Below, piece by piece: positions 9,305 to 28,959 of a stretch of DNA of 42,437 bases. The DNA is from Alphaproteobacteria bacterium (lineage in GTDB: Bacteria > Pseudomonadota > Alphaproteobacteria > Rhizobiales > Aestuariivirgaceae). The translations under genes and the position numbers were made by a program. Under the pieces are notes generated by a model. It was not told the origin of the DNA. It worked only from the letters and a program-made list of their open reading frames with translations, and made no database searches. Each line of letters opens with the position of its first letter. Within the stretch, counting starts at the first letter, position 1. The stretch is from positions 1 through 42,437 of the forward strand of contig JAGRLX010000182.1 in the NCBI GenBank assembly GCA_020441605.1, written 5' to 3'.

Positions 9305-10072
9305 TCAATGCGTGGCGGTCATCCCGCCATCGACGACGAGCGCGTGTCCGTTGACATAAGAGGCCCCGGACGTCGCGAGAAAGAGAACCGCGTGTGCGAC
9401 GTCTTCCGGCATGCCCCAACGGCCCACTGGCGTGGCCGCGCAGATCTTCGCATCAAAGGCGGTGTCCTGCTGCAGCGTCACATTGATATCGGTCCGGATA
9501 TAGCCGGGACAGACGGCATTGACTGTCACGCCTTCCGGCCCCAGTTCTGCGGCAAGCGCCCGTGTCAGGCCGAGCACGCCATGCTTGCTGGCCGTGTAAG
9601 CGGTCGCCGCCCGCTTGCCCTGCAGGCTGAGGATCGATGCAATCATGATGATGCGGCCGAACCTTGCAGCGACCATGGCGCGGGATGCCTCCCGCGAAAT
9701 GACATAAGCGGCGTTCAGATTCACGTCCAGGACCTGCCGCCAGCCGTCAGTTGTGCTGTCGAGGAACTTGCTGCGGTTGATGATCCCCGCGTTGTTGACC
9801 ACGATATCGGGCGCGCGTCCGGCCTCGCGGGCTTCACGGAAATAGTCGATGACGTCGCTTTCACGCGTGACGTCCAATTCAACAATGTCGGTGGGAATGG
9901 CCGGATTCGGCAGTCGAGCCGCTGTTTGCTCCAGTCCCTGCCGTCCACGGCCGCACAGGACCGTAGTCGCGCCGGCGTCATTGAGTGCGCAGGCGATCGC
10001 CCGGCCTATGCCGCGCGAGGCACCCGAGACGAATGCCCTGCGTCCCTGCAGGCTGAACGCGCTCGCACTCAT
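9305..10072 (-). CDS. Short-chain dehydrogenase/reductase (SDR), gluconate-5-dehydrogenase-like
   Basis: 255 residues, classical SDR. Cofactor motif SGASRGIG (16-23), NNAG (NNAGIINRSKF), a serine in IASILSLQG, catalytic Tyr and Lys in YTASKHG, and PGYIRTD after them. The C-terminus GHALVVDGGM is standard. Overall wording resembles gluconate 5-dehydrogenase/3-oxoacyl-ACP-reductase-type members, but SDR substrates cannot be read from sequence. Its ATG overlaps the stop of the preceding SDR by 4 nt (ATGA, 10069-10072), so the two are co-translated. Last gene of the hyuA-hyuB-SDR-SDR operon. It probably oxidises or reduces an alcohol/carbonyl before or after the HyuAB step. Confidence 0.85.
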   Translation of the reverse strand: MSASAFSLQGRRAFVSGASRGIGRAIACALNDAGATTVLCGRGRQGLEQTAARLPNPAIPTDIVELDVTRESDVIDYFREAREAGRAPDIVVNNAGIINRSKFLDSTTDGWRQVLDVNLNAAYVISREASRAMVAARFGRIIMIASILSLQGKRAATAYTASKHGVLGLTRALAAELGPEGVTVNAVCPGYIRTDINVTLQQDTAFDAKICAATPVGRWGMPEDVAHAVLFLATSGASYVNGHALVVDGGMTATH

Positions 10073-10869
10073 GCGTCATCGCCCAGAACGATGGGCCCCC
10101 GGTAACTCTCGAAGTTCCCGCAGACGCCAATCGACTGACCACTGATGAACCGGGCCTGATCGGACGCCAGAAACAGCGCCATGGCCGCCACGTCCTCGGC
10201 GTCTACCGCAGTGTGCATGGAAACATTGTGCAGAACCCGCGGCCAGTATTGCGCCAGGCTCAGGCCCGCGGCGGCGGCCTGTTCGGCAATGACCCGCCGG
10301 ACCCGTGCGCCGTTGACGACACCCGGCAGAAGCGAGTTCACCCGGATATTGTATTCACCCAGTTCGACCGCCAGCACGTCCGTGAAGCCACGCACCGCAT
10401 ATTTCGAAACCGAATAGACCGACCGCCGGGGCATTCCCATCTTGCCAGCCACCGATGACAAGTTGAGGATGACACCGGATCGTTGCGCCTTCATGAGCGG
10501 AATTGCCATCCGGGCACAGTAGAACTGGCCATTCACGTTGACATCTATCGTGTGGCACCATTCTGCGACGGAGATGTCTTCAACGGGTTTAGTCGGCCCG
10601 GAGACACCGGCATTGTTCACCAGTACGTCGATGCCGCCGAGCCAGTCGATGGCCACCTGCATGAAACGGCCAGCCGATTGGGCATTGCCGACGTCGGCTT
10701 CCCAACCGCGCAGCCGGTCACCGGATGTGCCGCCCGTGGCACAGGCCGGATCGATATCGCAAATGGCAACCTTTGCACCCGCATCCACAAAATAGCTGGC
10801 GATCACCTGGCCGATGCCGCTGCCGCCAGCCGTCACCACCACCCGCCGCCCATCCATGCTGATGTTCAT
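10069..10869 (-). CDS. Short-chain dehydrogenase/reductase (SDR)
   Basis: 266 residues, classical SDR. The cofactor loop TAGGSGIG (13-20) lacks the usual TGxxxGIG glycine at its second position. Asp in ICDID after the second beta strand suggests NAD(H) preference. NNAGVSGP, NLSSVAGKMGMP and YSVSKYA supply the Asn-Ser-Tyr-Lys tetrad. The region after PGVVNGARV has an insertion typical of SDRs acting on bulkier substrates. AAGGA and GAGG lie before the ATG at 10869. It is separated by 90 nt from hyuB upstream and overlaps the next SDR by 4 nt. Together these suggest a two-step oxidation/reduction attached to the HyuAB reaction. Substrate unknown. Confidence 0.85.
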   Translation of the reverse strand: MNISMDGRRVVVTAGGSGIGQVIASYFVDAGAKVAICDIDPACATGGTSGDRLRGWEADVGNAQSAGRFMQVAIDWLGGIDVLVNNAGVSGPTKPVEDISVAEWCHTIDVNVNGQFYCARMAIPLMKAQRSGVILNLSSVAGKMGMPRRSVYSVSKYAVRGFTDVLAVELGEYNIRVNSLLPGVVNGARVRRVIAEQAAAAGLSLAQYWPRVLHNVSMHTAVDAEDVAAMALFLASDQARFISGQSIGVCGNFESYRGPIVLGDDA

Positions 10870-10959: not shown

Positions 10960-12741
10960 TCACGGTGCGGTGCGCAATTCCAGTTCCTTCCGCCGCGTCT
11001 GGGTCGCGTCCATGTCGACGGCAAAGCTCTCGTCAAGGACGACGCCGTAGACATCCCGGGCCCTTTGCCGGGTGATCCAGCCCTCCTGTGCGTTGTGCGC
11101 GACCTTTTGTGGATCACGGCGCAAGGGTGACCCGAAGCCGCCTCCGCCACAGGTGACCGCGACGATCCGTTCGCCCGGCGCCAGAGTGATCGACGTGACG
11201 CCCGGAAGTGTTTCAAGGCTGCCATCGAGCCGGCGGCGGAACTGCTTGGCATTGCCTGCCGTGCCGCCGCCCCGCACACCCTTGGCCGGGTTCTGGCACC
11301 CGTCCGACACAAAATTGATATCCATCGAACAGCCGACCGGACCATACTCGGCGGTGCTACTCGGTGCGCCGTTGAAGGTCCCGGCCCCTTCGGTGTCCGT
11401 GACCAGACGCTTGTCATAGATGCGCAGGGGATAGTGCAGTTCCGAAACCTCGATGCTGTCCTGGTAGAGCATGCCGGCATTGCCTGCGTGCGCGATGGTT
11501 ACCCAGGCATCCTGGGTCGGCGTGCCAGCGCCCCCGGTGTGTACGATGAACAACTGGTTGACAAAGGGACGCTTGCGGCGGGGATCCACCCCCGAGACCA
11601 CCGCCATCGTTCCTGGCAGAATGGCGCCCGCTTCCGCCTGTCCGGCCCGCTCGGTCATTTCCGCAATCGCGGTCTGAACCGGATTTGTGATCCGGTCGGC
11701 CACATTGGTGGTGGCGACCGAACAACTGGTCGGATGCTGCGGAATGCCGACAACGCCGCCTTCGCGAAGCAGGATATCGAGCCTCCGGAAACTTCCGGCA
11801 TTACGCGGAACATCCTCGGGGATGGCATTCAGCACACCGATCATCGCCGCCGTACGGGTGCAGGCCTCGCTGACATTGAGGCCACACGGCAGGGAGTCGA
11901 TATTGTCGCGCAGATCGACGGTAATCCGCCCTTCCTGGGGGTCGATGCTCACCGTCGCCTTTACCGTGATCCCCTCAGGCGGCGTGCCCGGTGCCGGGTC
12001 ATGGGTGGAGGACCTGGTGATTGTCCCCGCCGGCAGGCGCGAGATCGCCGAAGCCATGATCGTCTCGGAATAGGCGAACCATTCCTCGACATAGTCGTCG
12101 AGATCGTCCCAACCGATTTCAGCGGCGAGGCCGATCACCTCGCGCTCGGCGATCCGTGCCGCACCGACCATGGCAAGATAGTCGCCCCACCACTGGTCCG
12201 GCACACGGATGCGCAGCCGGCAGATCCGGATGATGTCCTCGATGTCCCTATAGTCACGCTGCACCTGGGTTGCCGCGAAGATCAGAGCACCCTCATTGTA
12301 GACGTCGCGGGCCGAGCCCATGTAGGTCGTTGGCAGCGAATTGCCGATATCTGCTTGGTGCGCCTTGACCACCGCCGTGAAGCGATGGCGGCCGCCGTCA
12401 TCCATGATCGGGACGAGGATGCTGAGATCGGCCGGGTGCGAGCAGCCGTGGTAAGGCGAATTGTGCAGATAGGCATCGCCGGCCTTGAGGTCCGGATGGA
12501 GATCCTTCATCGACTTGGCCATCAGGTCCGGACCCGAGAGCACGTGAATGGGAATGCTCTCCGCGGTCGCCAGCAGCCGGCAATCGGCTGTCACGATGCA
12601 GCATGAAAAATCCCGGGCCGTCGCCAGCACGCCCGATCTCCCGGTCCTGAGCAGCGTGTTTGCCATCTTGCGGGCGATGCCCTCCCAGCGGTTGGAGAGA
12701 ATTGCCAGGCGAACGCCATCCACATTTTGCCGCTTGTCCAT
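10960..12741 (-). CDS. hyuB: Hydantoinase B/oxoprolinase family protein (first pair)
   Basis: 593 residues from the ATG at 12741, which has GAGGAG 7 nt upstream; a TTG seven codons earlier is less likely. Recognisable HyuB features: an N-terminal ISNRWEGIARKMANTLLRTGRS-like region, LLATAESIPIHVLSG, GDAYLHNSPYHGCSHPADLSI, a central ITVDLRDNIDSLPCGLNVSEA, and a glycine-rich C-terminus (GVRGGGTAGN, TCGGGGFGSP). Family knowledge: HyuB pairs with HyuA in ATP-dependent N-methylhydantoinase, 5-oxoprolinase, caprolactamase, and acetone or acetophenone carboxylase; substrate cannot be assigned by eye. It lies 21 nt after hyuA and before two SDR genes. It differs clearly from the second HyuB in this window (22426-24132), so the two pairs are not a recent duplication. 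Confidence 0.9.
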   Translation of the reverse strand: MDKRQNVDGVRLAILSNRWEGIARKMANTLLRTGRSGVLATARDFSCCIVTADCRLLATAESIPIHVLSGPDLMAKSMKDLHPDLKAGDAYLHNSPYHGCSHPADLSILVPIMDDGGRHRFTAVVKAHQADIGNSLPTTYMGSARDVYNEGALIFAATQVQRDYRDIEDIIRICRLRIRVPDQWWGDYLAMVGAARIAEREVIGLAAEIGWDDLDDYVEEWFAYSETIMASAISRLPAGTITRSSTHDPAPGTPPEGITVKATVSIDPQEGRITVDLRDNIDSLPCGLNVSEACTRTAAMIGVLNAIPEDVPRNAGSFRRLDILLREGGVVGIPQHPTSCSVATTNVADRITNPVQTAIAEMTERAGQAEAGAILPGTMAVVSGVDPRRKRPFVNQLFIVHTGGAGTPTQDAWVTIAHAGNAGMLYQDSIEVSELHYPLRIYDKRLVTDTEGAGTFNGAPSSTAEYGPVGCSMDINFVSDGCQNPAKGVRGGGTAGNAKQFRRRLDGSLETLPGVTSITLAPGERIVAVTCGGGGFGSPLRRDPQKVAHNAQEGWITRQRARDVYGVVLDESFAVDMDATQTRRKELELRTAP

Positions 12742-12762
12742 CGCCAACTCCTCGCTGCCCAA

Positions 12763-14838
12763 TTACTTCATGCCACCCAGATTCAGGATCAGTGAACCAG
12801 ACGGCGCCTTGACCGCCTCGACTCCAGGATTGACCACCACTGTCGTCAGCGAGGACTCGACGATCGCCGGACCCATCGTGCGCCACCCCTCCTCCAGCAG
12901 ATCGAACACGCTCACCGGAGCATCAACGAACCCCTCGCCGGCGAAATAGCATCTTCGGCTCGTCTGCATATGGGCCGGCGCCGCGCCCCGCGACACGCGG
13001 CCGGTTCCCCTTTCGCGCAATTGACAGCGGACATGGGCCTGCCAACTGACAATTTCCACTGGCGAGCCGCGGTCGGCGAAGGCGAAAAGCTCCTCGTGAA
13101 CCGCGTGGAAGTTCTGAACCAGCTGAGCCAAATCCTCGGCACCATGGAGCCGCGACCCGTTGAGCGGGGCCTCGATGTCCCAGACCTGGCTCGGATAGTG
13201 GCCTTCGATACTGAAGTCGATGCTGTGGCCGACGATATCGTCGCCGGCCGTTTCGACGAAGGCACGGCAGCGCCCCTCGAGTTGGGCCAACACCTCGTTG
13301 GCCAGCGCAAAGGAGAACGTGTCGCTGCTGATGTGCCGCGTGATGTTGAAGTGGCGTGAGAGATCGCTCATCAGAGCGCCCGCGGCACTGAGCGCTGCAC
13401 CGGTTTCGGGTATGATGGCGGTCGGACACCGGAGCCGCTTGCCAATAAGTGCGGTATTGAAGCCAGCAGCACCTCCGCCGCCGATCAGGATCGCCTTCGA
13501 CGGATCGATGCCTTGTTTCACCGTCAGATCGTCGATGGCATTGACCATGTTCTGGGTGACGACATCGATGATCGCCGCGGCTGCATCTTCAAGAGACAAG
13601 CCAAGCGGCCTGGCCACGCGCGCCTCGATCGCCTTGCGCGCGGCCGCCGTATCCAGCGCCATCGCACCGCCAAGAAAATTGTCCGGATCGAGATAGCCCA
13701 GCACCAGCGCCGCATCGGTGACCGTGGGCTCGGTTCCGCCACGGCCATAGCAAACGGGCCCCGGCACGGCACCAGCACTCTTGGGCCCCACGCGCAGCAT
13801 GCCCCCACTATCAACCGAGGCAATAGAACCACCGCCGGCGCCCACCGATTTCACATCAACCGACGGGAATCCCGTCATGTGGCCACGGAACGACTGTCCA
13901 ATCCAGGTCTCCCGGGTCCAGGGAATTTTGCCGCCGCGGATCAGCGAAACGTCGTAGGTCGTGCCGCCCGTATCGGCCACGATGGCGGATTCCATGTTGG
14001 CGTCGATCCCGGCATAATAGCGGCCCGCGACCGGGGCCATCGCCGGTCCGGAATTGATCGAGTGGATAGGTGCCAAGGCGATCTCGTCGGCATCCATGAC
14101 GCCGCCCTGAGAGGTGACGACGAGCACCCGCCCGGGGAACCCCGCTTCCTTCAAGCTTGCGGCCAGATTGCGCATATAGGCACCCATCAGCGGCTTGAGC
14201 GAGGCATCGATGGCCGCCGACGATGTGCGCCGGTATTCGCGGATGATCGGATTGATCTGGTGCGACAGTGTCAGCGGCACCCCCGGCATGAATTCCTCGA
14301 TCATCTCGCCGACGCGCAGTTCGTGCGCCGGGTTGGCGACGGACCACAACAGGCCCACCGCGATCGCTTCAACTTTCACACTCTTGAGGCGGGCAATCGC
14401 GTCCATTACCGACGACTCGTCGAGTGGCGTCACGACATCACCGGCCGCGCCAATTCTTTCGGTGATCTCGAAGGTGAGATGACGCGGAATATAGGGTTCG
14501 GGATAGGGAACCTTGAAATTAAAGGGTTCGATGCGTCCACCTTCACGGAACACCAGCACATCCGGGTTGCCCTTGGTGGTCAGCAGGGCGGTCCGGGCTG
14601 TGCTGCCCGTAACGATTGCGTTGATCGCCCGCGTGGTACCATGGATGAACATCTGTCCCTTCGACAGCAGATCATGGCGGGTCATGCCCAGGGCATCGGC
14701 CGCCACCTGCACCGAATCGAGTACGCCAAGGATCGGATTTTCCGGCGTCGTTGGCGCCTTGAACATGTGAAGCGCGCCCGCCTCGTCCTCGACCAGGAGG
14801 TCAGTGAATGTCCCGCCGGTGTCACACGCAAACCGCAT
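12763..14838 (-). CDS. hyuA: Hydantoinase A/oxoprolinase family protein (first pair)
   Basis: 691 residues; ATG at 14838 with GAGGAG about 10 nt upstream. It begins with the ATP-phosphate motif DTGGTFTDLL of the ASKHA fold, then HGTTRAINAI, ALLTTKG, EITERIGAAGDV, REYRRTSSAAID, SQGGVMDADE, NSGPAMAP, VADTGGTTYDVSL, VKSVGAGGGSIA, GPVCYGRGGTEPTVTDA and IGGGGAAGFN: a full-length HyuA. It supplies ATP-dependent activation (phosphorylation of a carbonyl or enolate oxygen) for a HyuB partner, encoded 21 nt downstream. First gene of the leftward operon. A long leader (about 200 nt) reaches back to a promoter at 15046-15075 that carries the GntR-type palindrome, so expression is probably controlled by the divergent regulator. 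Confidence 0.92.
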   Translation of the reverse strand: MRFACDTGGTFTDLLVEDEAGALHMFKAPTTPENPILGVLDSVQVAADALGMTRHDLLSKGQMFIHGTTRAINAIVTGSTARTALLTTKGNPDVLVFREGGRIEPFNFKVPYPEPYIPRHLTFEITERIGAAGDVVTPLDESSVMDAIARLKSVKVEAIAVGLLWSVANPAHELRVGEMIEEFMPGVPLTLSHQINPIIREYRRTSSAAIDASLKPLMGAYMRNLAASLKEAGFPGRVLVVTSQGGVMDADEIALAPIHSINSGPAMAPVAGRYYAGIDANMESAIVADTGGTTYDVSLIRGGKIPWTRETWIGQSFRGHMTGFPSVDVKSVGAGGGSIASVDSGGMLRVGPKSAGAVPGPVCYGRGGTEPTVTDAALVLGYLDPDNFLGGAMALDTAAARKAIEARVARPLGLSLEDAAAAIIDVVTQNMVNAIDDLTVKQGIDPSKAILIGGGGAAGFNTALIGKRLRCPTAIIPETGAALSAAGALMSDLSRHFNITRHISSDTFSFALANEVLAQLEGRCRAFVETAGDDIVGHSIDFSIEGHYPSQVWDIEAPLNGSRLHGAEDLAQLVQNFHAVHEELFAFADRGSPVEIVSWQAHVRCQLRERGTGRVSRGAAPAHMQTSRRCYFAGEGFVDAPVSVFDLLEEGWRTMGPAIVESSLTTVVVNPGVEAVKAPSGSLILNLGGMK

Positions 14839-15045
14839 GGCAAAAAGTCTCCTCGTCTAGATGTACGGGCTCCCGCGTCCAGCCTCCGTGGACGTCATTT
14901 GCGAAATGCTCGCTGCACTTGCAGGACATTCACCATCGGCACCACGGGTCTCGCCCGAATGATGGAACGCCAATCCGACCTTCGATCTGACAACCCATGA
15001 AAGCATCACATCGGTTCCGTTCACTCCGCCAACTCGCGCGGAAAA

Positions 15046-15075
15046 AATCTAGTCATGATTGCCAGACACTGTCAA
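15046..15075 (-). promoter_or_regulatory. Promoter of the leftward hyuA-hyuB-SDR operon
   Basis: Minus strand: a perfect -35 TTGACA (15070-15075) and -10 TAGATT (15046-15051), 18 nt apart. The palindrome at 15076-15095 abuts the -35. The same operator, -35 and TAGATT followed by Ts recur at 16047-16094 before the ABC operon. Confidence 0.7.
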
Positions 15076-15088
15076 CATACGTTATAAC
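15059..15088 (+). promoter_or_regulatory. Candidate promoter of the GntR regulator gene
   Basis: Plus strand: -35 TTGCCA (15059-15064), 18-nt spacer, -10 TATAAC (15083-15088). The -10 lies inside the palindrome at 15076-15095, so a protein bound there would block this promoter, giving autorepression. It overlaps the divergent hyu promoter. Confidence 0.5.
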
Positions 15089-15095
15089 ATATATC
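15076..15095. promoter_or_regulatory. Operator 1, palindrome around GTTATAAC (probable GntR/FCD site)
   Basis: ATACGTTATAACATAT (15077-15092) is a near-perfect palindrome centred at 15084.5. Read toward hyuA, it aligns with the site before the ABC operon as GATAT[A/C]TGTTATAA[C/G][G/A]TAT[G/A], with the same distance (9.5 bp) from centre to the -35. The binding protein is inferred to be the adjacent GntR regulator. Confidence 0.65.
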
Positions 15096-15166
15096 ACCTG
15101 ACTGTTGCTGTCGCTGGATTTGTCCTGATCTTTCTTGTCCAAAGGGGGCCGAGCGGGAACAAGCGC

Positions 15167-15901
15167 ATGACTGAACCTCTGAAATTGCTTCGCCGGCATC
15201 CGAAGGTCAAACCGCAGAAATTGCAGCGGCTCAGCAAGACCACGCTCCAGGACCAGGCCTATTCTGAGATCAAGGAAGCCCTGATGAGCGGCCATTTCAC
15301 ACCGGGCGACATCCTGGTCATCAGGGCGCTCGCGGCTGAGATGGGCACCAGCATCATGCCGGTCCGCGACGCCCTGCAGCGTCTCGTTGCAGAGCGCGCC
15401 CTTACGCTGCTGCCGAGCCGGACCGTGCAGGTTCCGCTCATCAACCGCCGCGAGTTCGACCAGATGACGGCAATCCGCATACGCCTTGAATCGCTCGCCA
15501 CCGAGACCGCTGCGGCACGGGTGACGCCCGCCATGATCGCCAGTCTCAGGCACCAGAACCGGGCCATGATCGAAGCCATCGCCAAGCAGGATGCCGAGAA
15601 GGTGCTCGAAGCAAACAAGACCTTTCACTTCACCCTCTACCAGGCATCGGAATCAGAAATGCTGGTGGGCTTCATTGAATCGCTGTGGCTGCGAATTGGC
15701 CCGCTGCTCAAGACGCCCTGGCGCATGGCCAACGGCAACCGCGTCTTCGACAGCGCCCGCGACACCCATCAGCTGCTGATCGAAGCCCTCGAAGATCGCG
15801 ATACTGATCGCGCCGCCGCGGCCATCGTCAAAGATATCACCGACGCTGCCGAATGGTATCGCGGCCAGAACCACGCATTTTCCGGAGAAGTCGATGCCTA
15901 G
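15167..15901 (+). CDS. GntR-family (FCD) transcriptional regulator
   Basis: 244 residues from the ATG at 15167. The frame is open further upstream, but that part covers the promoter and operator, so the inner Met is the start; its ribosome binding site is weak. Residues ~25-92 form the winged helix-turn-helix (LQDQAYSEIKEALMSGHFTPGD, then ALAAEMGTSIMPVRDALQRLVAERAL, the GntR signature). Residues ~98-235 form an all-helical FCD ligand domain with N151/H154 (NKTFHFTLY) and H201 (DTHQLL) as likely metal or ligand residues. The third FCD histidine is not evident. FCD regulators respond to carboxylates or amino acid derivatives and usually repress. It sits between the leftward hyu operon and the rightward ABC operon, both with the same palindrome, so it probably controls both and itself. 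Confidence 0.9.
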   Translation: MTEPLKLLRRHPKVKPQKLQRLSKTTLQDQAYSEIKEALMSGHFTPGDILVIRALAAEMGTSIMPVRDALQRLVAERALTLLPSRTVQVPLINRREFDQMTAIRIRLESLATETAAARVTPAMIASLRHQNRAMIEAIAKQDAEKVLEANKTFHFTLYQASESEMLVGFIESLWLRIGPLLKTPWRMANGNRVFDSARDTHQLLIEALEDRDTDRAAAAIVKDITDAAEWYRGQNHAFSGEVDA

Positions 15902-16046
15902 ATCACGGCGTCAGGGACCTTCAACGGCACCACTGCAGCACAACGCGAGGCCGGCATTCGCGTGCGACGGGACAGCGAACGGATTCCTTAGTCGGGCGCG
16001 GCGCAACCCCACGCAAAGACATGCCTCCAAACCGTCCGGATCGATG

Positions 16047-16066
16047 ATATCTGTTATAAGATATAT
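16047..16066. promoter_or_regulatory. Operator 2, palindrome around GTTATAAG (probable GntR/FCD site)
   Basis: ATATCTGTTATAAGATAT (16047-16064) has inverted arms ATATCT/AGATAT and shares the GTTATAA core and flanks with operator 1. It ends right at the -35 of the ABC operon promoter, centred near -45 relative to the predicted start of transcription. That position suits an activator, or a repressor blocking RNA polymerase. Confidence 0.65.
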
Positions 16067-16094
16067 TGACATCACCTGCTGATGTGCCTAGATT
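16066..16094 (+). promoter_or_regulatory. Promoter of the ABC transporter/PxpBC/HyuBA operon
   Basis: Perfect -35 TTGACA (16066-16071), 17-nt spacer and -10 TAGATT (16089-16094), followed by a T tract. Very similar to the hyuA promoter at 15046-15075, including the T run after the -10. Confidence 0.7.
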
Positions 16095-16239
16095 TTTTTG
16101 CCAGTACAACGGTCCTGAACTGCTGTGACTCGAGGGATGTATCGATGATGTCTTCATTCCGAATCCCAGCCCGCTCTCCTCGGCCCCGATTGGAGCCTTG
16201 CGCTTCTCCCTCACTCACCAGCTGCGGAAGAAACCTGCC

Positions 16240-17331: not shown

Positions 17332-17383
17332 CAGGAAGGCCTGACCCAAATCGAGGCAGGCTTCATAACAAGGAGGAAGGAAC

Positions 17384-20519: not shown

Positions 20520-20571
20520 CCGACCAAGGCGCGAGAATGGCTTGATGTGGCAGGCGGGATCATCGTCATGA
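20516..20571 (+). promoter_or_regulatory. Two mini-ORFs forming a stop/start relay between permease and pxpB
   Basis: The permease stop overlaps an ATG (ATGA, 20516-20519) that opens 9 codons, 20516-20545. That stop overlaps the next ATG (TGATG, 20543-20547), which opens 8 codons, 20545-20571. That stop in turn overlaps the ATG of pxpB (ATGA, 20568-20571). Terminating ribosomes could re-initiate step by step. There is no evidence that the peptides have a function, and chance is possible. Confidence 0.35.
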
Positions 20572-21449: not shown

Positions 21450-22429
21450 TGGCTTTTGAAGTCCTCAAGGCCGGCCTCGAGACCAGTGTGCAGGATCTGC
21501 CCGGCCGCATCGGCTACTGGGAACAGGGGTTTCCACCATCCGGCCCCATGGATTTCTGGTCCTTCCGCCTGGCAAACCTGCTCGTCGGCAATGACCAGAA
21601 TGCCGCCGCGCTGGAATGCCAGTTCCTCGGACCCACCCTGCGCTTTCTCACCGGTACCGTGTTCGCCGTCACTGGCGCCGACATGCGTCCGCAGCTTGAC
21701 GGAGAACCCCTTCCCCTGTGGCAGAGTTTCACTGCGAAGCCCGGCCAAGTTCTGGAACTCGGTCCAGCCATGGTCGGCGCGCGCAGCTACATCGCATTTG
21801 CCGGAGGCATCGATACGCCCCCAGTGCTTGGCTCACGATCGACCTTCCACATGGCCGGCGTTGGGGGCGTTGACGGCCATGCCTTGAAATCGGGGCAGCG
21901 CATCCCGATGGGCACATCGAACCCCACGCCAGGCATGGCAGTGAAATCCGATAGCCGTCCGCCGATCTGCGCCACCAGGTCGTGGGCGATTGCTGTGGTG
22001 CGGGGTCCCAACGACGACTGGATCGACGAGGCTGGTCACGATCGTTTCTTTGCCGCCGACTGGACATTGCTGGCCAAGAGCAATCGCACCGGCATGCGGC
22101 TCAGGGGACCGGACTTCACCTTCACCGAACGCGCCCGGAACAAACGGCCCGAACACGGCCAGGACCCGTCGAACATACTGGACCACGGCTATCCAGTCGG
22201 CGCTGTCAACCTGGCGGGCCAAACGCCAATCATTCTGGTCAACGACGGACCGAGCACCGGCGGATTCATCAATCCCTATACGGTTCCCTCGGCGGAGTTC
22301 TGGAAACTGGGCCAGGCGCCGCCCGGCAGCATCTTCCGCTTCCACGCGGTCACCCTCGACGAGGCCATCGCCGAACGCCGGCGCATCGACCGCCTGTGCA
22401 GCCTGGGCGCGATTATTCCCGCCGTGTGA
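21446..22429 (+). CDS. pxpC: PxpC/KipA-like carboxyltransferase-domain protein (5-oxoprolinase subunit C family)
   Basis: 327 residues, typical length. AHS2 (allophanate hydrolase subunit 2/urea carboxylase-like) domain throughout: FEVLKAGLETSVQDLPGRIGYWEQGFPPSGPMDFWSFRLANLLVGN, ALECQFLGPTLRF, ARSYIAFAGGI, SRSTFHMAGVGG, then VRGPNDDWI and RTGMRLRGPDF, with VNDGPSTGGFINPYTV near the end. Its ATG overlaps the pxpB stop (ATGA, 21446-21449) and its stop overlaps the GTG of hyuB (GTGA, 22426-22429), so stoichiometric co-translation is expected. Probably forms a complex with PxpB that acts together with the HyuA/HyuB pair rather than with PxpA. Confidence 0.87.
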   Translation: MMAFEVLKAGLETSVQDLPGRIGYWEQGFPPSGPMDFWSFRLANLLVGNDQNAAALECQFLGPTLRFLTGTVFAVTGADMRPQLDGEPLPLWQSFTAKPGQVLELGPAMVGARSYIAFAGGIDTPPVLGSRSTFHMAGVGGVDGHALKSGQRIPMGTSNPTPGMAVKSDSRPPICATRSWAIAVVRGPNDDWIDEAGHDRFFAADWTLLAKSNRTGMRLRGPDFTFTERARNKRPEHGQDPSNILDHGYPVGAVNLAGQTPIILVNDGPSTGGFINPYTVPSAEFWKLGQAPPGSIFRFHAVTLDEAIAERRRIDRLCSLGAIIPAV

Positions 22430-24132
22430 AGCGCCAGATGCAGCGCCAACGCCTGACAGTATCATCCTTCGGACTGAACCCAGCCACGCTCGAGGTCATT
22501 CATGGCAAGCTGATCGCCGCCGTAGATGAAATGGCGATCATCACCGCCCGCACCAGTATGAGCCCGGTGATCTACGAGGTCCTCGACTATGCCTGCGGCA
22601 TCTGCCGTGCTGACGGCGACCTTATCGCCCAGGCCAATGGCATCACGCTCTTCACTGGAACTTTTTCCGAGCAGATCCGCTTCATCCTGCGACGCTTTGG
22701 CGACGATATGGCGCCCGGCGACACATTCCTCACCAATGATCCCTACGAAGGCGGAACCCACGCCTGCGACATGGCGGTAATACGGCCAGTCTTCCATGAC
22801 GGTCGCAGGGTCGCATTCGCCATCAACGTCGCCCACTGGCTCGATGTCGGGGGCGCCGTAGCGGGAAGCATTCCCGTCAATGCCACCTCGATCTTCGAGG
22901 AGGGCCTTCGCCTATCGGGCGTGCGGCTCACGCGCAACGATAGCGTGTTGCCCGACATGATCGCGGTCATCACCGAGAATGTCCGCCTGCCCAAGTTGGC
23001 GCTGGGCGATCTCCGCGCTCAACTGGCGTCCGTCCAACGCGCCGCCAACCGCATCGAGGAAATCATTTCCGACTACGGGCTCGAGACGCTGGAGCGGAGC
23101 TTCATGGCGATCCTCGACCTCGCCGAACAGGAGAGCCGCGACGCCCTCGCACAGATTCCGGACGGCGAATATGTCTGCGCTGACGCGATCGATGGCGACG
23201 GAGTAAATGACGGTGCTATTCCCGTCCGCTGCCGGATCGTGAAGCAGGCTGACCGCCTAACCGTCGATTTTACCGGTTCGGCTGCGACCGCCAGTGGGCC
23301 GATCAATTGCTCTGAAGGTGCGACGCGCTCGGCCGTGAAAACCGTGTTCAAGGCAATCGTGGGACCCAGTGAGCCCTCAAACGAAGGCTGGTTCCGGCCT
23401 CTCGAGGTCATTCTGCCGCCCGGCACCGTGTTCAGCGCTGCGAAGCCCGCGCCCACCGGCTGGTACTACGAAGGCTCGGTTCATGCCTCGGAGCTTGTAT
23501 GGCGTGCGCTGGCGCCGTTCGCACCACAGCGTCTGTCGGCGGGGTCCTATGCCAGCCTGTGCGTGACCTACCTGACCATGCGGGCGGCGGATGGCAGCGA
23601 ACTCGTCCACATCGAGCCCCAGCACGGCGGCTGGGGCGCCTGCCATGACCGCGATGGCGCCTCAGGATTGATCTCGCTGACTGACGGCGACACCTACAAT
23701 TATTCGATCGAGCTGCTGGAAGCCAAGTTTCCGCTGCTTGCCGAACGTTATGGCTTTAACGTCGAAGGTGGTTCTGGCGCTGGGCGTTTTCGTGGAGGTT
23801 ACGGCCTCGTGCGGGAGTATCGCATCTTGTCGCCATCGGCCCAGGGTTATTGCGGGCTTGGCCGCACCCGGATCGCACCCTGGAGCATGGACAATGCAGC
23901 GCAAGGGTCGGTCAATTACGTCGAGATCGTCCGAACCAGCGGTGAAGTGACCCGGCACGGCCGCGAACCGAATTTCCTCCTCGCCAAGGGCGATGTCGTC
24001 CGCGTGGTGACCGGCGGCGGCGGCGGATGGGGTCCACCGGACATGCGCGAGCCCGCTCTCATTGCCCGCGACGTCGAGAACGGATTGATCTCGCCGGAAC
24101 AGGCGAAGGAAATGTACGGGGCCAGTCCATGA
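22426..24132 (+). CDS. hyuB: Hydantoinase B/oxoprolinase family protein (second pair)
   Basis: 568 residues from GTG 22426, chosen because every other junction in this stretch is a 4-nt overlap; the in-frame ATG at 22438 is the alternative. Characteristic HyuB segments: NPATLEVIHGKLIAAVDEMAIITARTSMSPVIYE, GDLIAQANGITLFTGTF, GDTFLTNDPYEGGTHACDMAVI, LTVDFTGSAATASGPINCS, HGGWGACHDRDG, NVEGGSGAGRFRGGYGLVREY and the closing VTGGGGGWGPP. This member looks closer to the N-methylhydantoinase/oxoprolinase type than the first HyuB in the window. Translation is coupled to pxpC upstream and hyuA downstream. Confidence 0.9.
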   Translation: MKRQMQRQRLTVSSFGLNPATLEVIHGKLIAAVDEMAIITARTSMSPVIYEVLDYACGICRADGDLIAQANGITLFTGTFSEQIRFILRRFGDDMAPGDTFLTNDPYEGGTHACDMAVIRPVFHDGRRVAFAINVAHWLDVGGAVAGSIPVNATSIFEEGLRLSGVRLTRNDSVLPDMIAVITENVRLPKLALGDLRAQLASVQRAANRIEEIISDYGLETLERSFMAILDLAEQESRDALAQIPDGEYVCADAIDGDGVNDGAIPVRCRIVKQADRLTVDFTGSAATASGPINCSEGATRSAVKTVFKAIVGPSEPSNEGWFRPLEVILPPGTVFSAAKPAPTGWYYEGSVHASELVWRALAPFAPQRLSAGSYASLCVTYLTMRAADGSELVHIEPQHGGWGACHDRDGASGLISLTDGDTYNYSIELLEAKFPLLAERYGFNVEGGSGAGRFRGGYGLVREYRILSPSAQGYCGLGRTRIAPWSMDNAAQGSVNYVEIVRTSGEVTRHGREPNFLLAKGDVVRVVTGGGGGWGPPDMREPALIARDVENGLISPEQAKEMYGASP

Positions 24133-26210
24133 TCCGCCTTGCGACCGATGTCGGTGGCACCTTCACCGATCTCGTCGGCTTCGACGATGCGACCGGCCGG
24201 TTGTTCACGGCAAAGAGCCTTACCACGCCGCATCACCATGCGCAGGGCGTTGTCGATGTCATTGTCCAGGCCATCGCAGAAGGTGGTCTTGATCCCGTCG
24301 CAATCGGCTACTTCGTGCACGGCGGAACGACGGTGATCAATGCCATCCTCGAGCGCAAAGGTGTTCGCACCGCGCTTGTAACCACCCGAGGTTTCCGCGA
24401 TGTCCTTGAGATCGGCCGGGGCAACCGGCCAGATCTTTACAATCTCCGGGCCAAGACCCCCGATCCCTTCGTGCCGCGGGCATTGCGCTTCGAAATTACT
24501 GAGCGAGTGGCGGCCGATGGCAGCGTCGTGCGACCCCTGGCCGAGGAGGAGCTTGCCCCGATCGCCGAGGCCTGCCGGAACCAACAGGTGCAGGCGGTCG
24601 CCATCGTCTTTCTCCATTCCTATCGCAATCCCGAGCATGAACGCAGATGTGCCGATGCCTTGCGGGCCATGCTGCCCGGCGTGACGATATGTGCAAGTCA
24701 TGAGATTTCCCGCGAATGGCGCGAGTACGAGCGGACCAGCACTGCGGTGCTAAATGCCTATGTGCAGCCGATTGCAGCCCGTTATGTCGAAAACTTGTCG
24801 GGTGAACTGGAGGCGCTGCGCATTAGCCGGCCCTATTACCTGATGCAGTCCAACGGCGGCGTCACCCGATTCGAACAGGCCGTCGAACGGCCGCTGACGC
24901 TGATCGAGTCTGGCCCGGCGGGCGGCGTGGCCGGCGCCATTCGTGTGGGCGAGGCCCTTGGCCTCGATGATGTGCTTTATCTCGACGTCGGCGGCACCAC
25001 CGCGAAGTGCAGCCTCATCCGGGCTGGGCGGCCAGAAATCCTGTCGCTTTACCGCCTCGAACACACTCGGACGTCGCCGGGGCACACAGTCCAGGTTCCG
25101 GTTGTCGATATCGTCGAGATCGGTGCGGGTGGAGGATCGATCATCCGGACCGATGCCGCGGGACGGCTGCGCGTCGGTCCTGACAGCGCCGGCGCCAATC
25201 CCGGCCCGGTCTGCTATGGCCTTGGCGGCAGCGAACCCACGCTGACAGATGCTGCGACCCTCCTCGGGTATTTGGACCCCGAACATTTCGCCGCCGGACG
25301 AATGAAGCTGGACGCATCAGCGGCACGGCGCAGCTTCGAGACGCTGGGCGCCTCAATCGGAAGGTCGGCCGAGGAGATCGCTGCCGATGCCTGGCGCATC
25401 GCCATCGCGAGTATGATCAGCGCGCTCAAGCTCGTGACGGTGGAGCGCGGTCATGATCCGCGCCGCCTGACACTCATTGTCAGCGGTGGAGCCGGTCCGC
25501 TGTTCGCCGCACAGCTCGGCGCGATCCTGCAATGCCGGCAGGTGGTCATTCCACCGTTCTCCGGCAATTTCTCCGCTTGGGGCATGTTGGCAGCTCCGCC
25601 ACGGTTTCACTTGCGCCACAGCTTCTATTGCCCGCTCGTCGACGCAAGCCTTGCCGCCGTGGTTTCGGCATTCGACGACCTCGCGGCACAGGCGCATGCA
25701 TTTCACGGAGCGGCCACCAAGCCCCGCCTGAGTCATTTCCTCGACATGCGCTACGCTGGCCAGGAACACAGCGTCACAGTAGAAATCGGCGCAAAGATGA
25801 CGGCCTCCGCCATCGCCACGCTGTTTCATACAGCCCATGAACGAGCCTACTCCTTTTCCATTCCCGACGGCGCGATAGAAATCACCAATGTGGCCATCAT
25901 GGCCGAACTCGATGTGGCACTGGTGAGCTTCCCGGCTGCCGGGTCCGAACAGGTAGCGATCACGCGCGCACCGCGCCGCGTCTATATTTCCCATGCAGCA
26001 GAAGTAACCACCGGCAACGGCGCCTGGTCGGCAACTCCGGTTTTCGAACGCCATTCCTTGCCGCCAGGCTGGTCGGCATCCGGTCCGGCCCTGATCGAGG
26101 AGAGCAGTTCGACCACGGTCGTCCATTCTGGACAGCGGGCACACGTGGCAATCGGTGGCATTCTCTGCATCGATCACGCATCTTCCGAGAATCAGCACGC
26201 CTTGGGCTAG
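24129..26210 (+). CDS. hyuA: Hydantoinase A/oxoprolinase family protein (second pair)
   Basis: 693 residues; the ATG overlaps the hyuB stop (ATGA, 24129-24132), and the frame open upstream of it is ignored. ASKHA ATPase motifs DVGGTFTDLVGF, HGGTTVINAI, TTRGFRDVLEIGRGNRPDLYNL, EITERVAADGSVV, REWREYERTSTAVLNAY, MQSNGGVTRFEQA, ESGPAGGVAGAI, LDVGGTTAKCSLI, IGAGGGSI, GPVCYGLGGSEPTLTDA and VSGGAGPLFAAQL: a complete, conventional HyuA. Partner of the HyuB encoded just before it. It phosphorylates the substrate with ATP so that ring opening or carboxylation can proceed. It shares the general plan but limited wording with the first HyuA (12763-14838), pointing to a different substrate or reaction step. 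Confidence 0.92.
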   Translation: MIRLATDVGGTFTDLVGFDDATGRLFTAKSLTTPHHHAQGVVDVIVQAIAEGGLDPVAIGYFVHGGTTVINAILERKGVRTALVTTRGFRDVLEIGRGNRPDLYNLRAKTPDPFVPRALRFEITERVAADGSVVRPLAEEELAPIAEACRNQQVQAVAIVFLHSYRNPEHERRCADALRAMLPGVTICASHEISREWREYERTSTAVLNAYVQPIAARYVENLSGELEALRISRPYYLMQSNGGVTRFEQAVERPLTLIESGPAGGVAGAIRVGEALGLDDVLYLDVGGTTAKCSLIRAGRPEILSLYRLEHTRTSPGHTVQVPVVDIVEIGAGGGSIIRTDAAGRLRVGPDSAGANPGPVCYGLGGSEPTLTDAATLLGYLDPEHFAAGRMKLDASAARRSFETLGASIGRSAEEIAADAWRIAIASMISALKLVTVERGHDPRRLTLIVSGGAGPLFAAQLGAILQCRQVVIPPFSGNFSAWGMLAAPPRFHLRHSFYCPLVDASLAAVVSAFDDLAAQAHAFHGAATKPRLSHFLDMRYAGQEHSVTVEIGAKMTASAIATLFHTAHERAYSFSIPDGAIEITNVAIMAELDVALVSFPAAGSEQVAITRAPRRVYISHAAEVTTGNGAWSATPVFERHSLPPGWSASGPALIEESSSTTVVHSGQRAHVAIGGILCIDHASSENQHALG

Positions 26211-26259: not shown

Positions 26260-28959
26260 GTGTCTATCCGAAATCTCAAGTTCCTCTTTGCCCCCCGTTC
26301 AATTGCCCTGGTCGGCGCCAGCGAAAAGCCTGGCACCGTCGGACAGGTATTGGCGCAAAACCTGCTGGCGGGAGGATTCAAGGGCGAGGTGACGCTGGTC
26401 AATCCGCACCTCGATGCGCTGTCGGGCCATCCCGTCCTGCCAGATGTTGAAAGTCTCGCGTCAGCACCCGATCTCGCCGTCATCGCCACGCCGCCACCAA
26501 CCGTTCCCCATCTGATAGGAGCGCTCGGCACCAAGGGAACCAAAGCCGCCATCGTCATCACCGCGGGCTTCGGCGAGACCGGCGAGGCCGGCCGCAAACT
26601 CCAACAGACCATGCTGGAGGCCGCTCGCCCGCATCTGTTGCGAATCCTCGGGCCCAATTGCTTCGGCACCGTGATTCCACGCCTTGGTCTCAGCACCAGC
26701 TTCGGCCGGGTCATGCCGCCATCCGGCAGCATCGCCCTCGTTTCCCAGTCGGGCGCCATCAATGCCGCAGTAAGCGATTGGGCCGCGGCACGGCGCATCG
26801 GCTTCTCGCATCTCGTCTCTCTGGGAGGGATGGCGGACATCGATTTTGGCGATGTCCTCGACTATCTGGCCGGCGACACGACGACCAGCGCCATCCTACT
26901 CTATATCGAAGCGATCACCCAGCCACGCAAGTTCATGTCCGCCGCCCGCGCCGCCGCCCGCACTAAGCCGGTCATCGTGGTCAAGGCCGGCCGGAGTTCC
27001 AGTGGTGCTGCTGCCGCCGCCTCCCACACCGGCTCGTTGACTGGTGCCGACGATGTCTATGATGCCGCCTTCCGCCGCGCCGGCATGCTGCGTGTCGACC
27101 GCCTGGAACATCTGTTCGAAGCCGTCGAGGCCCTGAGCCTGCTTGCACGGCCAGCGGGCTCGCGCCTCGCCATCATCAGCAATGGCGGAGGGTTGGGTGT
27201 CATGGCCGCCGATGCCGCGGCGGCCGAACGGATCAGCCTTGCCAAACTGGACCAGGCCACGATTGCTCAACTGGACGCGGCACTGCCCCCCACGTGGTCA
27301 CGGCACAACCCCGTCGATGTCATTGGCGATGCCTCGGATTCCCGCTATGTCGCGGCCCTCGATGCCGTGGCCAGCGATCCCAATCTCGATGCCGTGCTCG
27401 TCATTCATTGCCCCACAGCGATCCAGTCCAGCACACAAATCGCCGAAGCAGTGGTTGAGCGGATCGGCGACGGCCTGAAGGTTCCCGTCTTTGCCTGCTG
27501 GGCTGGCGGTGTCTCGGTGGTCGAGGGACGCGAAAGGCTGTCTGCATCCGGAATCGCAAATTTCAATACACCTGAAGAAGCCGTGAGAGCCTTCGCGCAG
27601 ATTGCCACTTTCTGGCGGAACCAGGAACATCTTCTGGAGGTACCTCCCGCCCGGCCCGTCGACCTCGCTGCCGACCAGGCCGGTGCGCGGCGTATCCTTG
27701 ACGATGCTCAGCGGCGCCATCTTGCCTGGCTCGATGCTGGACAGGCGCTGTTGCTCATGGAAGCCTATGGTATCCCTGTAGCCAAGTCGGTGGTTTGCCG
27801 CGACGCCGGTGAAGTGGCGCGCGCCACCGAAGCTATCGGCGGACCTGTGGCCTTGAAGGTTGTCTCGACCCAGATCCTGCACAAGTCGGACGTTGGCGGT
27901 GTCATGCTCGGGCTTGAGAGCGGCGATCAGGCCCGAAAAGCGGCCGAAGCCATGATTGACCGCCTGGCCCGCCTCGATCCGGCGCCGCATATCGACGGCT
28001 TTCTGGTTCAGGCGATGATCAGGCGGCCACAGGCCCGCAGTCTCCTGGTGGGCATGACCTGCGATCATACATTTGGCCCCGTGGTCGTGTTCGGCCATGG
28101 CGGCACCGCCGTCGAGGTGATCGCCGACCGGTCCATCGGCCTGCCACCAATCAACCGCAAGCTCGCCCGCGACATGATTGAGCGCACCCGCGTCCACCGT
28201 CTGCTCCAAGCTTACCGTGACGTACCCGAGGCCGATCTCGATGCCGTCGCCAGCACTCTGGTCCAAGTGTCGCGGCTGATCATCGACAATCCGGACATCG
28301 TTGAACTCGACATCAACCCGCTCCTCGCCGACGAAACCGGCGTGATCGCCGTCGATGTTCGGGTTCGCATCGCGCCGGACGCTCAGATCGGTGATCGCCG
28401 GCTGTCGATCAGTCCCTATCCGCGCGACCTCGTGGCAACGCTGGCCCTGCCGGACGGCAGCGGCCTCGTGCTGCGCCCAGTAACACCGGAAGACGGTCGT
28501 TCGCTGACGCGAATGCTCGAACGGTGCAATGCCGGGCCAGGTGGCTTCCTGACCCGTGATGCCACGGCCTATCTCACGGCACCGCGGGCGACACAGATCG
28601 ACTACGATCGCCAGATGGCCTGGGTCGCCGAGCGGCCCGGTCAATCGCAGGACGCGCTGGGCGCCATCTGCATGAACGCCGATCCTGATAACGAATACGC
28701 CGAAGTCGTCCTCGCGGCCGGACCAGATGCAAACCCCGAGGACATCGTCGATATACTCTTGAGCCAAGTGATTGCTCTCGCGAGAACGCGCGGTATCGGC
28801 ACTCTCACGGCCAATCTCGACTGGTCTAGCACGCGCCTGGCAGCGCTCCTCCAGGCGCAGGGCTTTGCAGGGGCAACTTCCGGCAGATCATCGATCCTAG
28901 ACCCACTCACATTGCGGCTTGCCGTCACGCCCAGCGGCGGAGGGACATCGCACGCTTGA
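26260..28959 (+). CDS. NDP-forming acyl-CoA synthetase with C-terminal GNAT-like domain (Pat-like)
   Basis: 899 residues from GTG 26260 (weak ribosome binding site). CoA-binding Rossmann domain (APRSIALVGASEKPGTVG, ~10-135, ending ILGPNCFG) and ligase domain (ALVSQSGAINAA, LYIEAI). His256 in SHTGSLTGADDVYDAAFRRAG is the expected phosphohistidine; as I recall, Salmonella Pat lacks it, so this enzyme may still make acyl-CoA. An ATP-grasp domain follows (LLMEAYGIPVAKS to VVFGHGGTAVEVIADRSIGLPPIN, ~495-690; ELDINPL ~725). Residues ~755-899 resemble a weak GNAT acetyltransferase domain (LRPVTPEDGRSLTRMLERC, ARTRGIGTLTANLDW). It follows hyuA after 49 nt with no terminator seen, so it may be co-transcribed. 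Its 3' end overlaps the convergent dehydrogenase gene by 35 bp. Confidence 0.85.
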   Translation: MSIRNLKFLFAPRSIALVGASEKPGTVGQVLAQNLLAGGFKGEVTLVNPHLDALSGHPVLPDVESLASAPDLAVIATPPPTVPHLIGALGTKGTKAAIVITAGFGETGEAGRKLQQTMLEAARPHLLRILGPNCFGTVIPRLGLSTSFGRVMPPSGSIALVSQSGAINAAVSDWAAARRIGFSHLVSLGGMADIDFGDVLDYLAGDTTTSAILLYIEAITQPRKFMSAARAAARTKPVIVVKAGRSSSGAAAAASHTGSLTGADDVYDAAFRRAGMLRVDRLEHLFEAVEALSLLARPAGSRLAIISNGGGLGVMAADAAAAERISLAKLDQATIAQLDAALPPTWSRHNPVDVIGDASDSRYVAALDAVASDPNLDAVLVIHCPTAIQSSTQIAEAVVERIGDGLKVPVFACWAGGVSVVEGRERLSASGIANFNTPEEAVRAFAQIATFWRNQEHLLEVPPARPVDLAADQAGARRILDDAQRRHLAWLDAGQALLLMEAYGIPVAKSVVCRDAGEVARATEAIGGPVALKVVSTQILHKSDVGGVMLGLESGDQARKAAEAMIDRLARLDPAPHIDGFLVQAMIRRPQARSLLVGMTCDHTFGPVVVFGHGGTAVEVIADRSIGLPPINRKLARDMIERTRVHRLLQAYRDVPEADLDAVASTLVQVSRLIIDNPDIVELDINPLLADETGVIAVDVRVRIAPDAQIGDRRLSISPYPRDLVATLALPDGSGLVLRPVTPEDGRSLTRMLERCNAGPGGFLTRDATAYLTAPRATQIDYDRQMAWVAERPGQSQDALGAICMNADPDNEYAEVVLAAGPDANPEDIVDILLSQVIALARTRGIGTLTANLDWSSTRLAALLQAQGFAGATSGRSSILDPLTLRLAVTPSGGGTSHA

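What the first reader, a model, noticed from the sequence alone, without database searches (positions are those of the whole stretch)
9305..28959. Catabolic island with two different HyuA/HyuB pairs, PxpB/PxpC without PxpA, a PotABCD-type importer, two SDRs and an acyl-CoA synthetase
HyuA/HyuB enzymes use ATP to open hydantoins, 5-oxoproline or caprolactam, or to carboxylate ketones. PxpB and PxpC normally work with PxpA on 5-oxoproline, but no PxpA-like (LamB/YcsF) gene is present; hyuB-hyuA takes its place in the overlapping chain pxpB-pxpC-hyuB-hyuA. One testable idea is that PxpBC and HyuBA form one four-subunit ATP-dependent lactamase or carboxylase. The other HyuAB pair plus SDRs would process the product or a second ring. 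I know of no characterised pathway with this exact set, but I cannot search for precedents.
Basis: partly seen in the sequence, partly recalled or inferred. Interest (0 to 1): 0.75.

Follow-up and report, generated by a model that had tools for sequence, protein, structure and literature searches.

The report
Catabolic regulon pairing two enzyme modules
A bacterium carries two back-to-back gene sets, apparently under one switch, that probably import and break down a nitrogen-containing compound, in which a carboxylase-like enzyme pair lacks its usual neighbouring partners and sits instead beside a different ATP-driven ring-opening enzyme.

Summary
In detail: 9305-28959 carries HyuAB1, two SDRs, a PotABCD-type importer, PxpB/PxpC, HyuBA2 and an ADP-forming acyl-CoA ligase; no PxpA-like gene was found in 42 kb. 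New here: two near-identical promoter/operator cassettes in mirror image flank a GntR gene and face the two operons, so this looks like one regulon. PxpBC are not ordinary PxpBC: they score best against the carboxyltransferase part of urea carboxylase, and 54 of 64 related loci also carry PxpA, 45 of 64 biotin carboxylase. In the window neither, nor a biotin carrier, was found, yet 130 of 132 near-invariant residues are kept. The four-subunit idea is not supported: HyuBA2 relatives stand without PxpBC in all 8 neighbourhoods read, and 58 of 64 PxpBC loci have no Hyu gene. Best reading: separate enzymes of one pathway. Some HyuAB1 relatives stand with carbonic anhydrase or beta-keto-acid cleavage enzyme, so HyuAB1 may be a ketone carboxylase. 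PxpB and HyuB probably share two other contigs (equal contig lengths), so the combination is rare but not unique. No whole genome is held, so PxpA and a dedicated biotin carboxylase elsewhere cannot be excluded. New variant of known kinds; substrate unknown.

The parts
9305..10072 (-). SDR oxidoreductase a
   Evidence: Pfam adh_short_C2 1.5e-63
10069..10869 (-). SDR oxidoreductase b
   Evidence: Pfam adh_short_C2 5.5e-50
10960..12762 (-). HyuB1, beta subunit, 600 aa; metal-ligand positions Asp/His/Asp/His kept
   Evidence: Pfam Hydantoinase_B 7e-116; alignment to HyuB2
12763..14838 (-). HyuA1, ATP-binding alpha subunit, 691 aa; both DxGGT motifs and GxxPGP kept
   Evidence: nearest solved structure caprolactamase alpha 6yra
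15042..15096 (-). promoter/operator cassette facing the hyuAB1-SDR operon (TTGACA-18-TAGATT, operator core GTTATAAC)
15167..15901 (+). GntR/FCD regulator (ORF from 15059; ATG at 15167 preferred by eye)
   Evidence: Pfam FCD 2e-23, GntR 6e-16
16045..16098 (+). promoter/operator cassette facing the importer-pxpBC-hyuBA-CoA ligase operon (TTGACA-17-TAGATT, operator core GTTATAAG)
16198..17331 (+). PotA-type ABC ATPase (true start uncertain)
17384..18688 (+). PotD/PotF-fold binding protein with a twin-arginine-type leader (by eye)
18766..19674 (+). PotB-type permease
19686..20519 (+). PotC-type permease
20568..21449 (+). PxpB-like, CT_C_D, urea-carboxylase CT type
21446..22429 (+). PxpC-like, CT_A_B, urea-carboxylase CT type
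22438..24132 (+). HyuB2, 564 aa; Asp50, His108, Asp111, His133 align with the caprolactamase metal ligands
24129..26210 (+). HyuA2, 693 aa; both DxGGT motifs and GxxPGP kept
26260..28959 (+). ADP-forming acyl-CoA ligase; most listed relatives carry a C-terminal GNAT domain, which Pfam does not find here
1789..9253 (-). possible continuation of the minus operon: adenine deaminase 7442-9253, GATase 6307-7272, glutamate-synthase-like 4376-6331, FAD/NAD oxidoreductase 1789-4347
   Evidence: same strand, 51 nt behind the SDR; the operator word occurs only at the two sites near gntR

Best explanation
The island is one GntR-controlled catabolic regulon of two divergent operons (paired cassettes shown by sequence; control by this GntR is inferred). 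The plus operon imports a small nitrogen-containing compound through a PotABCD-type transporter (fold of the binding protein predicted, ligand unknown). HyuBA2 is a self-sufficient ATP-dependent amidohydrolase of the two-subunit hydantoinase/oxoprolinase branch that opens a cyclic amide or hydantoin (inferred from motifs and relatives). PxpB/PxpC are a separate enzyme, a carboxyltransferase pair of the urea-carboxylase type, acting on an amide or ureido group of the same pathway; its biotin carboxylase, biotin carrier and perhaps PxpA must come from elsewhere in the genome, or have become dispensable (inferred). The minus operon (HyuAB1 plus two SDRs) handles the carbon skeleton: the SDRs make a ketone and HyuAB1 carboxylates it to a beta-keto acid, or opens a second lactam, and the ADP-forming ligase makes the CoA ester (inferred from relatives).
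For: Twin cassettes: local alignment score 25 against at most 13 in 2004 control comparisons; operator word 4 hits against 0.03 expected, in two sites. Urea-carboxylase type: PxpB 186 bits against TIGR02712, 90 against PxpB; PxpC 314 against 177 for PxpC. Usual partners: PxpA in 54, biotin carboxylase in 45, both in 42 of 64 loci; among 34 loci with at least 8 kb on both sides, PxpA 31 and biotin carboxylase 25; no Hyu gene in 58 of 64. Window PxpBC keeps 130 of 132 near-invariant columns. HyuBA2 relatives without PxpBC: 8 of 8 read; 6 of the 8 have the importer genes directly downstream. HyuAB1 relatives: Cupriavidus HyuA-HyuB-gamma carbonic anhydrase facing SDR-SDR-BKACE, with GntR and a Glu/Leu/Phe/Val dehydrogenase; Rhizobium BT03 BKACE, SDR and CoA transferase; G393 HyuAB facing two SDRs. 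Complete ATP and metal motifs in both pairs.
Against: No assay, no ligand. Tight packing of pxpBC and hyuBA, and their probable co-occurrence on two further contigs, would also fit a joint function. Keeping the conserved residues is not specific: first PxpBC pairs of loci without neighbouring PxpA differ at only 1 to 5 of the 132 columns. Caprolactamase itself needs bicarbonate (PMC8453981), so carbonic anhydrase beside HyuAB does not decide carboxylase against lactamase; both window pairs have two-subunit lengths, which by PMC5214803 is the hydrolase pattern. BKACE stands near HyuAB1 relatives in only 2, carbonic anhydrase in 1 of 7 loci read. SDRs are common genes. Promoter-like sites in the region (4) are no more than chance (3.4); only the twin match is significant.
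Confidence: 0.6

Rival explanations
1. The native biotin-dependent set is split: PxpA, biotin carboxylase and carrier are encoded elsewhere in the same genome and PxpBC works with them as in related loci; HyuBA2 is only a neighbour in the same regulon.
For: 42 of 64 related loci have both PxpA and biotin carboxylase; window PxpBC is not degraded; four of five genomes with a PxpBC pair lacking a neighbouring PxpA have LamB/YcsF genes elsewhere.
Against: In those genomes at least two of the PxpA genes (on contig C16 of G002, C116 of G368) stand with their own AccC and PxpBC, and the fifth genome, G001, has none. The window's genome cannot be searched.
Confidence: 0.3
2. PxpBC and HyuBA2 are four subunits of one ATP-dependent lactamase or carboxylase.
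For: pxpB-pxpC-hyuB-hyuA spaced -4, 8 and -4 nt; PxpB P0003 and HyuB P0130 both list a 628,521-base contig, P0066 and P0214 both a 133,786-base contig; G001 has PxpBC and HyuBA in one region and no PxpA match.
Against: Each pair occurs without the other in most relatives seen. No PxpB's list of 120 carries the contig lengths of HyuB relatives P0122, P0125, P0127 and P0128. HyuA and HyuB alone keep complete motifs.
Confidence: 0.08
3. PxpBC is a left-over or a KipI/KipA-like regulator and has no catalytic role here.
For: No BC, BCCP or PxpA found in the window; sources name some homologues 'KipI family sensor histidine kinase inhibitor'; in the relative L017 a histidine kinase gene (1135-2544) lies between PxpB and PxpC.
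Against: 130 of 132 near-invariant columns kept; a separate clade with three relatives at 77-85% identity and 100/100 support; no histidine kinase among the window ORFs scanned with Pfam.
Confidence: 0.05

Closest known systems
PxpABC prokaryotic 5-oxoprolinase (E. coli, B. subtilis, C. glutamicum)
   Same: CT_C_D and CT_A_B pair, gene order pxpB-pxpC with a short overlap
   Different: no PxpA; both proteins below the PxpB and PxpC equivalog cut-offs and closer to urea carboxylase CT; E. coli PxpBC shares 73 of 132 conserved columns
Urea carboxylase CT domain
   Same: best family score for both proteins; 3va7 is the best PDB match for PxpC and second for PxpB
   Different: separate proteins; no biotin carboxylase or biotin carrier in the window; below the cut-off of the whole-enzyme model
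LamB/YcsF-(Cpn60-like)-PotABCD-PxpBC-AccBC clusters (L005, L009, L020, L034, L050)
   Same: closest kind of cluster for PxpBC, importer and GntR included
   Different: window lacks PxpA, AccB and AccC and has HyuBA and a CoA ligase; its importer is at most 31% identical to any importer compared
hyuB-hyuA-PotABCD clusters of Rhizobiales/Rhodobacterales plasmids (Aminobacter, Rhizobium tumorigenes, Leisingera)
   Same: HyuB 57-60% (55% in R. tumorigenes), HyuA 53-54% identical; importer of the same type
   Different: no PxpBC, LuxR- instead of GntR-type regulator; importer downstream, not upstream
Caprolactamase CapAB and the solved N-methylhydantoinase 7hk5
   Same: ATP-dependent hydrolases of this family with the same motifs
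   Different: below the caprolactamase cut-offs (543 and 450 of 1000 bits for the alpha subunits)
Acetophenone carboxylase operon (ApcABCDE plus benzoylacetate-CoA ligase; PMC5214803, passages)
   Same: logic of ATP-dependent carboxylase plus CoA ligase
   Different: no genes for alpha', gamma or epsilon subunits seen here

Membership tests
PxpABC 5-oxoprolinase | PxpA (LamB/YcsF) encoded with PxpBC | tested here: not met
   none in 42 kb by phmmer with E. coli PxpA; rest of the genome not held
PxpABC 5-oxoprolinase | scores above the PxpB and PxpC equivalog cut-offs | tested here: not met
   89.8 of 145.55 and 177.2 of 500 bits; PxpC does pass the broader domain model TIGR00724, 269 of 230
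PxpABC 5-oxoprolinase | hydrolyses 5-oxoproline | not testable with these tools
   needs assay
Biotin-dependent (urea-type) carboxylase | CT domain of urea-carboxylase type | tested here: met
   best score of both proteins, PDB matches; the whole-enzyme cut-off of 1303.85 bits is not reached, nor could be by CT parts alone
Biotin-dependent (urea-type) carboxylase | biotin carboxylase and biotin carrier | tested here: not met
   none found in the window; elsewhere in the genome unknown
Hydantoinase/oxoprolinase (two-subunit Hyd branch) | two subunits only, alpha about 690 and beta about 560-600 aa, no gamma subunit | tested here: met
   691/600 and 693/564 aa; gaps between neighbouring genes of each operon at most 90 nt; small ORFs were not scanned with a gamma-subunit profile; criteria from PMC5214803 section 7
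Hydantoinase/oxoprolinase (two-subunit Hyd branch) | ATP motifs DxGGT x2 and GxxPGP, metal ligands D/H/D/H | tested here: met
   both pairs
Hydantoinase/oxoprolinase (two-subunit Hyd branch) | gene order hydA-hydB (PMC5214803) | tested here: inconclusive
   met by pair 1; pair 2 is B-A, but so is characterised capBA (PMC8453981)
Acetone/acetophenone carboxylase | gamma subunit (and alpha', epsilon for Apc), longer alpha and beta | tested here: not met
   lengths and gene spacing; a carboxylase without them is not excluded
Caprolactamase | NCBIfam equivalog cut-off | tested here: not met
   543 (HyuA1), 450 (HyuA2), 246 (HyuB1), 230 (HyuB2) of 1000 bits
PotABCD polyamine importer | ATPase, two permeases and a PotD/PotF-fold binding protein | tested here: met
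PotABCD polyamine importer | binds polyamines | not testable with these tools
   the same fold also binds GABA and opines

The most novel reading that the evidence does not exclude
HyuBA2 has replaced the PxpA/biotin-carboxylase/biotin-carrier part of an ancestral biotin-dependent enzyme: it makes the activated one-carbon unit (carboxyphosphate, as proposed for its ketone-carboxylase kin) or the phospho-activated amide and hands it to the PxpBC carboxyltransferase pair, giving a biotin-free hybrid carboxylase/amidohydrolase.
Probability: 0.08. Interest if true: 0.85.

Novelty: new variant of a known kind. Interest (0 to 1): 0.45.

Why it matters
It defines a testable regulon with two ATP-dependent Hyu enzymes and a carboxyltransferase pair without its usual neighbours. 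It also shows that, in this subfamily, genes named PxpB/PxpC (5-oxoprolinase) sit near biotin carboxylase in 45 of 64 loci and resemble urea-carboxylase-type carboxyltransferases, so the 5-oxoprolinase name is doubtful for them. If PxpBC here works without biotin carboxylase and PxpA, that would bear on how PxpBC uses ATP.

Tried and rejected
Four-subunit complex: rejected as the main reading for the reasons given. Hyu near PxpBC in five genomes (G001, G002, G197, G290, G368; loci L015, L016, L095, L096) as support for partnership: discounted, because these carry 14 to 40 HyuB matches each, some of them fragments (the two other genomes of that call have 13 and 2). Importer ancestry as a clue to the substrate: the tree leaves the window's importer on its own long branch. 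The binding protein scores 100-107 bits with all 6 Hyu-linked relatives and 47-81 with 26 others from PxpBC loci, but 131 and 119 with those of L023 and L047, which lie in PxpA-bearing loci, so this was dropped as evidence. Lineage of the window: k-mer comparison only hints at Hyphomicrobiales. The place of the window's PxpBC differs between the two trees, apart from its firm clade of four. Searches in 385 (class), 299 (order), 397 (order), 76 (order), 31 (order) and 384 (family) genomes gave no second genome with pxpBC and hyuBA in tandem in the stretches read; they used PxpB or HyuB2 alone, were evenly drawn samples except, and around some weaker hits only about 1.5 kb on either side was read. 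The contig-length matches suggest co-location, not adjacency. The CoA ligase search listed no relative on those two contigs. Rfam gave nothing at gathering scores. Paper searches for precedents listed no paper whose title or abstract start tells of a pxpBC-hyuBA operon; only open-licence PMC papers are held, and three were looked into: PMC8453981 (passages), PMC5214803 (passages and section 7), PMC13274462 (passages).
Full report
What is there. Minus strand: HyuA1 12763-14838, HyuB1 10960-12762, SDRs 10069-10869 and 9305-10072. Plus strand: GntR/FCD regulator about 15167-15901, PotABCD-type importer 16198-20519, PxpB 20568-21449, PxpC 21446-22429, HyuB2 22438-24132, HyuA2 24129-26210, ADP-forming acyl-CoA ligase to 28959. 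Spacing in the four-gene chain is -4, 8 and -4 nt. PxpA, biotin carboxylase and a biotin carrier were not found in the window with E. coli PxpA, AccC and AccB as queries nor by a biotin-motif scan. No whole genome is held.

One regulon. Two cassettes in mirror image flank the GntR gene. The minus-strand one (15096 to 15042) reads TGATATATGTTATAACGTATGTTGACA, 18 nt, TAGATT; the plus-strand one (16045 to 16098) reads TGATATCTGTTATAAGATATATTGACA, 17 nt, TAGATT. Their local alignment scores 25 against a maximum of 13 in 2004 control comparisons with the rest of the window. The operator word, with up to 2 mismatches, has 4 hits (two sites, both strands) against 0.03 expected and none elsewhere in the window. 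Promoter-like hits alone are at chance level (4 found, 3.4 expected). The cassettes face the two operons; control by this GntR is inferred.

What PxpBC is. Both proteins score best against urea carboxylase (186 and 314 bits) and below the PxpB and PxpC equivalog cut-offs; PxpC does pass the broader domain model TIGR00724 (269 of 230.2). I aligned 30 of the 120 listed homologues of PxpB and scanned species genomes with that alignment: 64 loci. In these, PxpA is present in 54, biotin carboxylase in 45, both in 42, Hyu genes in 6, Hyu in tandem with pxp genes in 2 (L046, L061), where HyuA sits beside a complete PxpA-AccC-PxpBC set. Seven loci have neither PxpA nor biotin carboxylase, three of them on short pieces of 5-8 kb. 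Of the 34 loci with at least 8 kb on both sides of PxpB, 31 have PxpA, 25 biotin carboxylase, and 2 neither (L015, L016). The window's PxpBC keeps 130 of 132 columns that are near-invariant (97%) in 54 PxpA-linked rows; first pairs of loci without neighbouring PxpA also differ at only 1 to 5, so this shows an intact protein, not a partner. In one tree the window groups, at 84%, with PxpA-bearing loci, in another with a mixed set; in the second it forms a firm clade (100/100) with three PxpB of the protein search at 77-85% identity. So this is a sound carboxyltransferase-type pair whose usual partners are not next door.

What HyuBA2 is. It has both ATP motifs, the adenosine motif and the four metal ligands. 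The best solved match is an N-methylhydantoinase (7hk5). Of 1006 plasmid records with a HyuA2 match, 30 listed, I read 5 neighbourhoods and 3 more found in 397 genomes of one order: none has PxpBC; 6 of 8 have importer genes directly downstream, one is interrupted by insertion sequences behind an ATPase fragment, and the haloarchaeal one has another importer. Among homologues of HyuB2 the nearest (76-84%) list contigs of 11,962, 11,312, 641,769 and 15,905 bases besides shorter ones, lengths that do not occur in the PxpB list, while P0130 (69%) and P0214 (62%) list contigs of 628,521 and 133,786 bases, exactly the lengths listed for PxpB P0003 (78%) and P0066 (66%). I infer that PxpB and HyuB share those two contigs; adjacency is not shown. 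Both lists show only the best 120 and one contig length per cluster.

What HyuAB1 is. The best solved match is caprolactamase alpha. I read 4 of 12 listed plasmid neighbourhoods (996 records matched) and three genomic ones (L130, L131, L132). SDR-like genes are near in 7 of 7, with two divergent SDRs in L126 and L130; BKACE in 2 of 7; a gamma carbonic anhydrase in 1 (Cupriavidus, directly behind HyuB). In Enhydrobacter the closest HyuA1 relative of that genome (61%, of 31 candidates) lies about 4 kb from its PxpABC genes. BKACE uses beta-keto acids (recalled; its Pfam name says so), which suggests a ketone carboxylase, and the window's CoA ligase could play the part of the benzoylacetate-CoA ligase in the apc operon (PMC5214803, passages). 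Against this, both Hyu pairs have the lengths and gene number of hydrolases by that paper's criteria (section 7), and caprolactamase also needs bicarbonate (PMC8453981, passages).

Controls that weakened leads. The genomes with PxpBC and Hyu genes in one region (such as L015, L095) hold 14 to 40 HyuB matches in 1.8-3.9 Mb, so nearness of Hyu and PxpBC there means little. LamB/YcsF is present elsewhere in four of five such genomes and absent from G001.

Mechanism. Shown by sequence: gene content, intact motifs, twin cassettes, partners not found in 42 kb. Inferred: import, ring opening by HyuBA2, carboxyl transfer by PxpBC with partners from elsewhere, ketone carboxylation or second ring opening by HyuAB1, CoA activation. 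The assumed role of PxpBC in 5-oxoprolinase, phosphorylation of 5-oxoproline, is taken from PMC13274462 (passages). Verdict: real, coherent, rare, and a new variant of known kinds rather than a demonstrated new enzyme.

Noticed in passing
L008:3311-4918, L001:4118-5638, L004:3372-4856 and others: A Cpn60/TCP1-like protein (62 bits to Cpn60_TCP1 for L008) sits between the PxpA-like gene and the ABC ATPase; proteins like it were found in 29 of 64 PxpBC loci by phmmer, not in all of them at that place. A chaperonin-like gene in a carboxylase-type cluster is unexplained.
   Followed up: partly
L015:10001-15055, L095, L097: Duplicated PxpB-PxpC-PxpB'-PxpC' set beside a divergent fused E1 2-oxoacid dehydrogenase gene, with BKACE behind it in L015 and L095; the second pair differs at 17-19 of 132 near-invariant columns.
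   Followed up: partly
L017:1135-2544: A histidine kinase gene lies between PxpB and PxpC on the same strand, of interest because the family includes the kinase inhibitor KipI.
   Followed up: no
   Followed up: no
window 1789-9253: Adenine deaminase followed by a GATase, a glutamate-synthase-like protein with GXGXG domain and a large FAD/NAD oxidoreductase, on the same strand 51 nt behind the SDRs; may belong to the regulon.
   Followed up: partly
window 28925-33488: Glu/Leu/Phe/Val dehydrogenase plus E2, E1-beta and E1-alpha of a 2-oxoacid dehydrogenase, converging on the CoA ligase; the Cupriavidus HyuAB1 relative also has such a dehydrogenase and an indolepyruvate oxidoreductase nearby.
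   Followed up: no
L046:3877-11856, L061:339-6423: Tandem HyuA-PxpA-AccC-PxpB-PxpC (with HyuB upstream in L046): a complete Pxp and biotin carboxylase set joined to a Hyu gene.
   Followed up: partly
window 41415-42404: Acetamidase/formamidase family gene.
   Followed up: no
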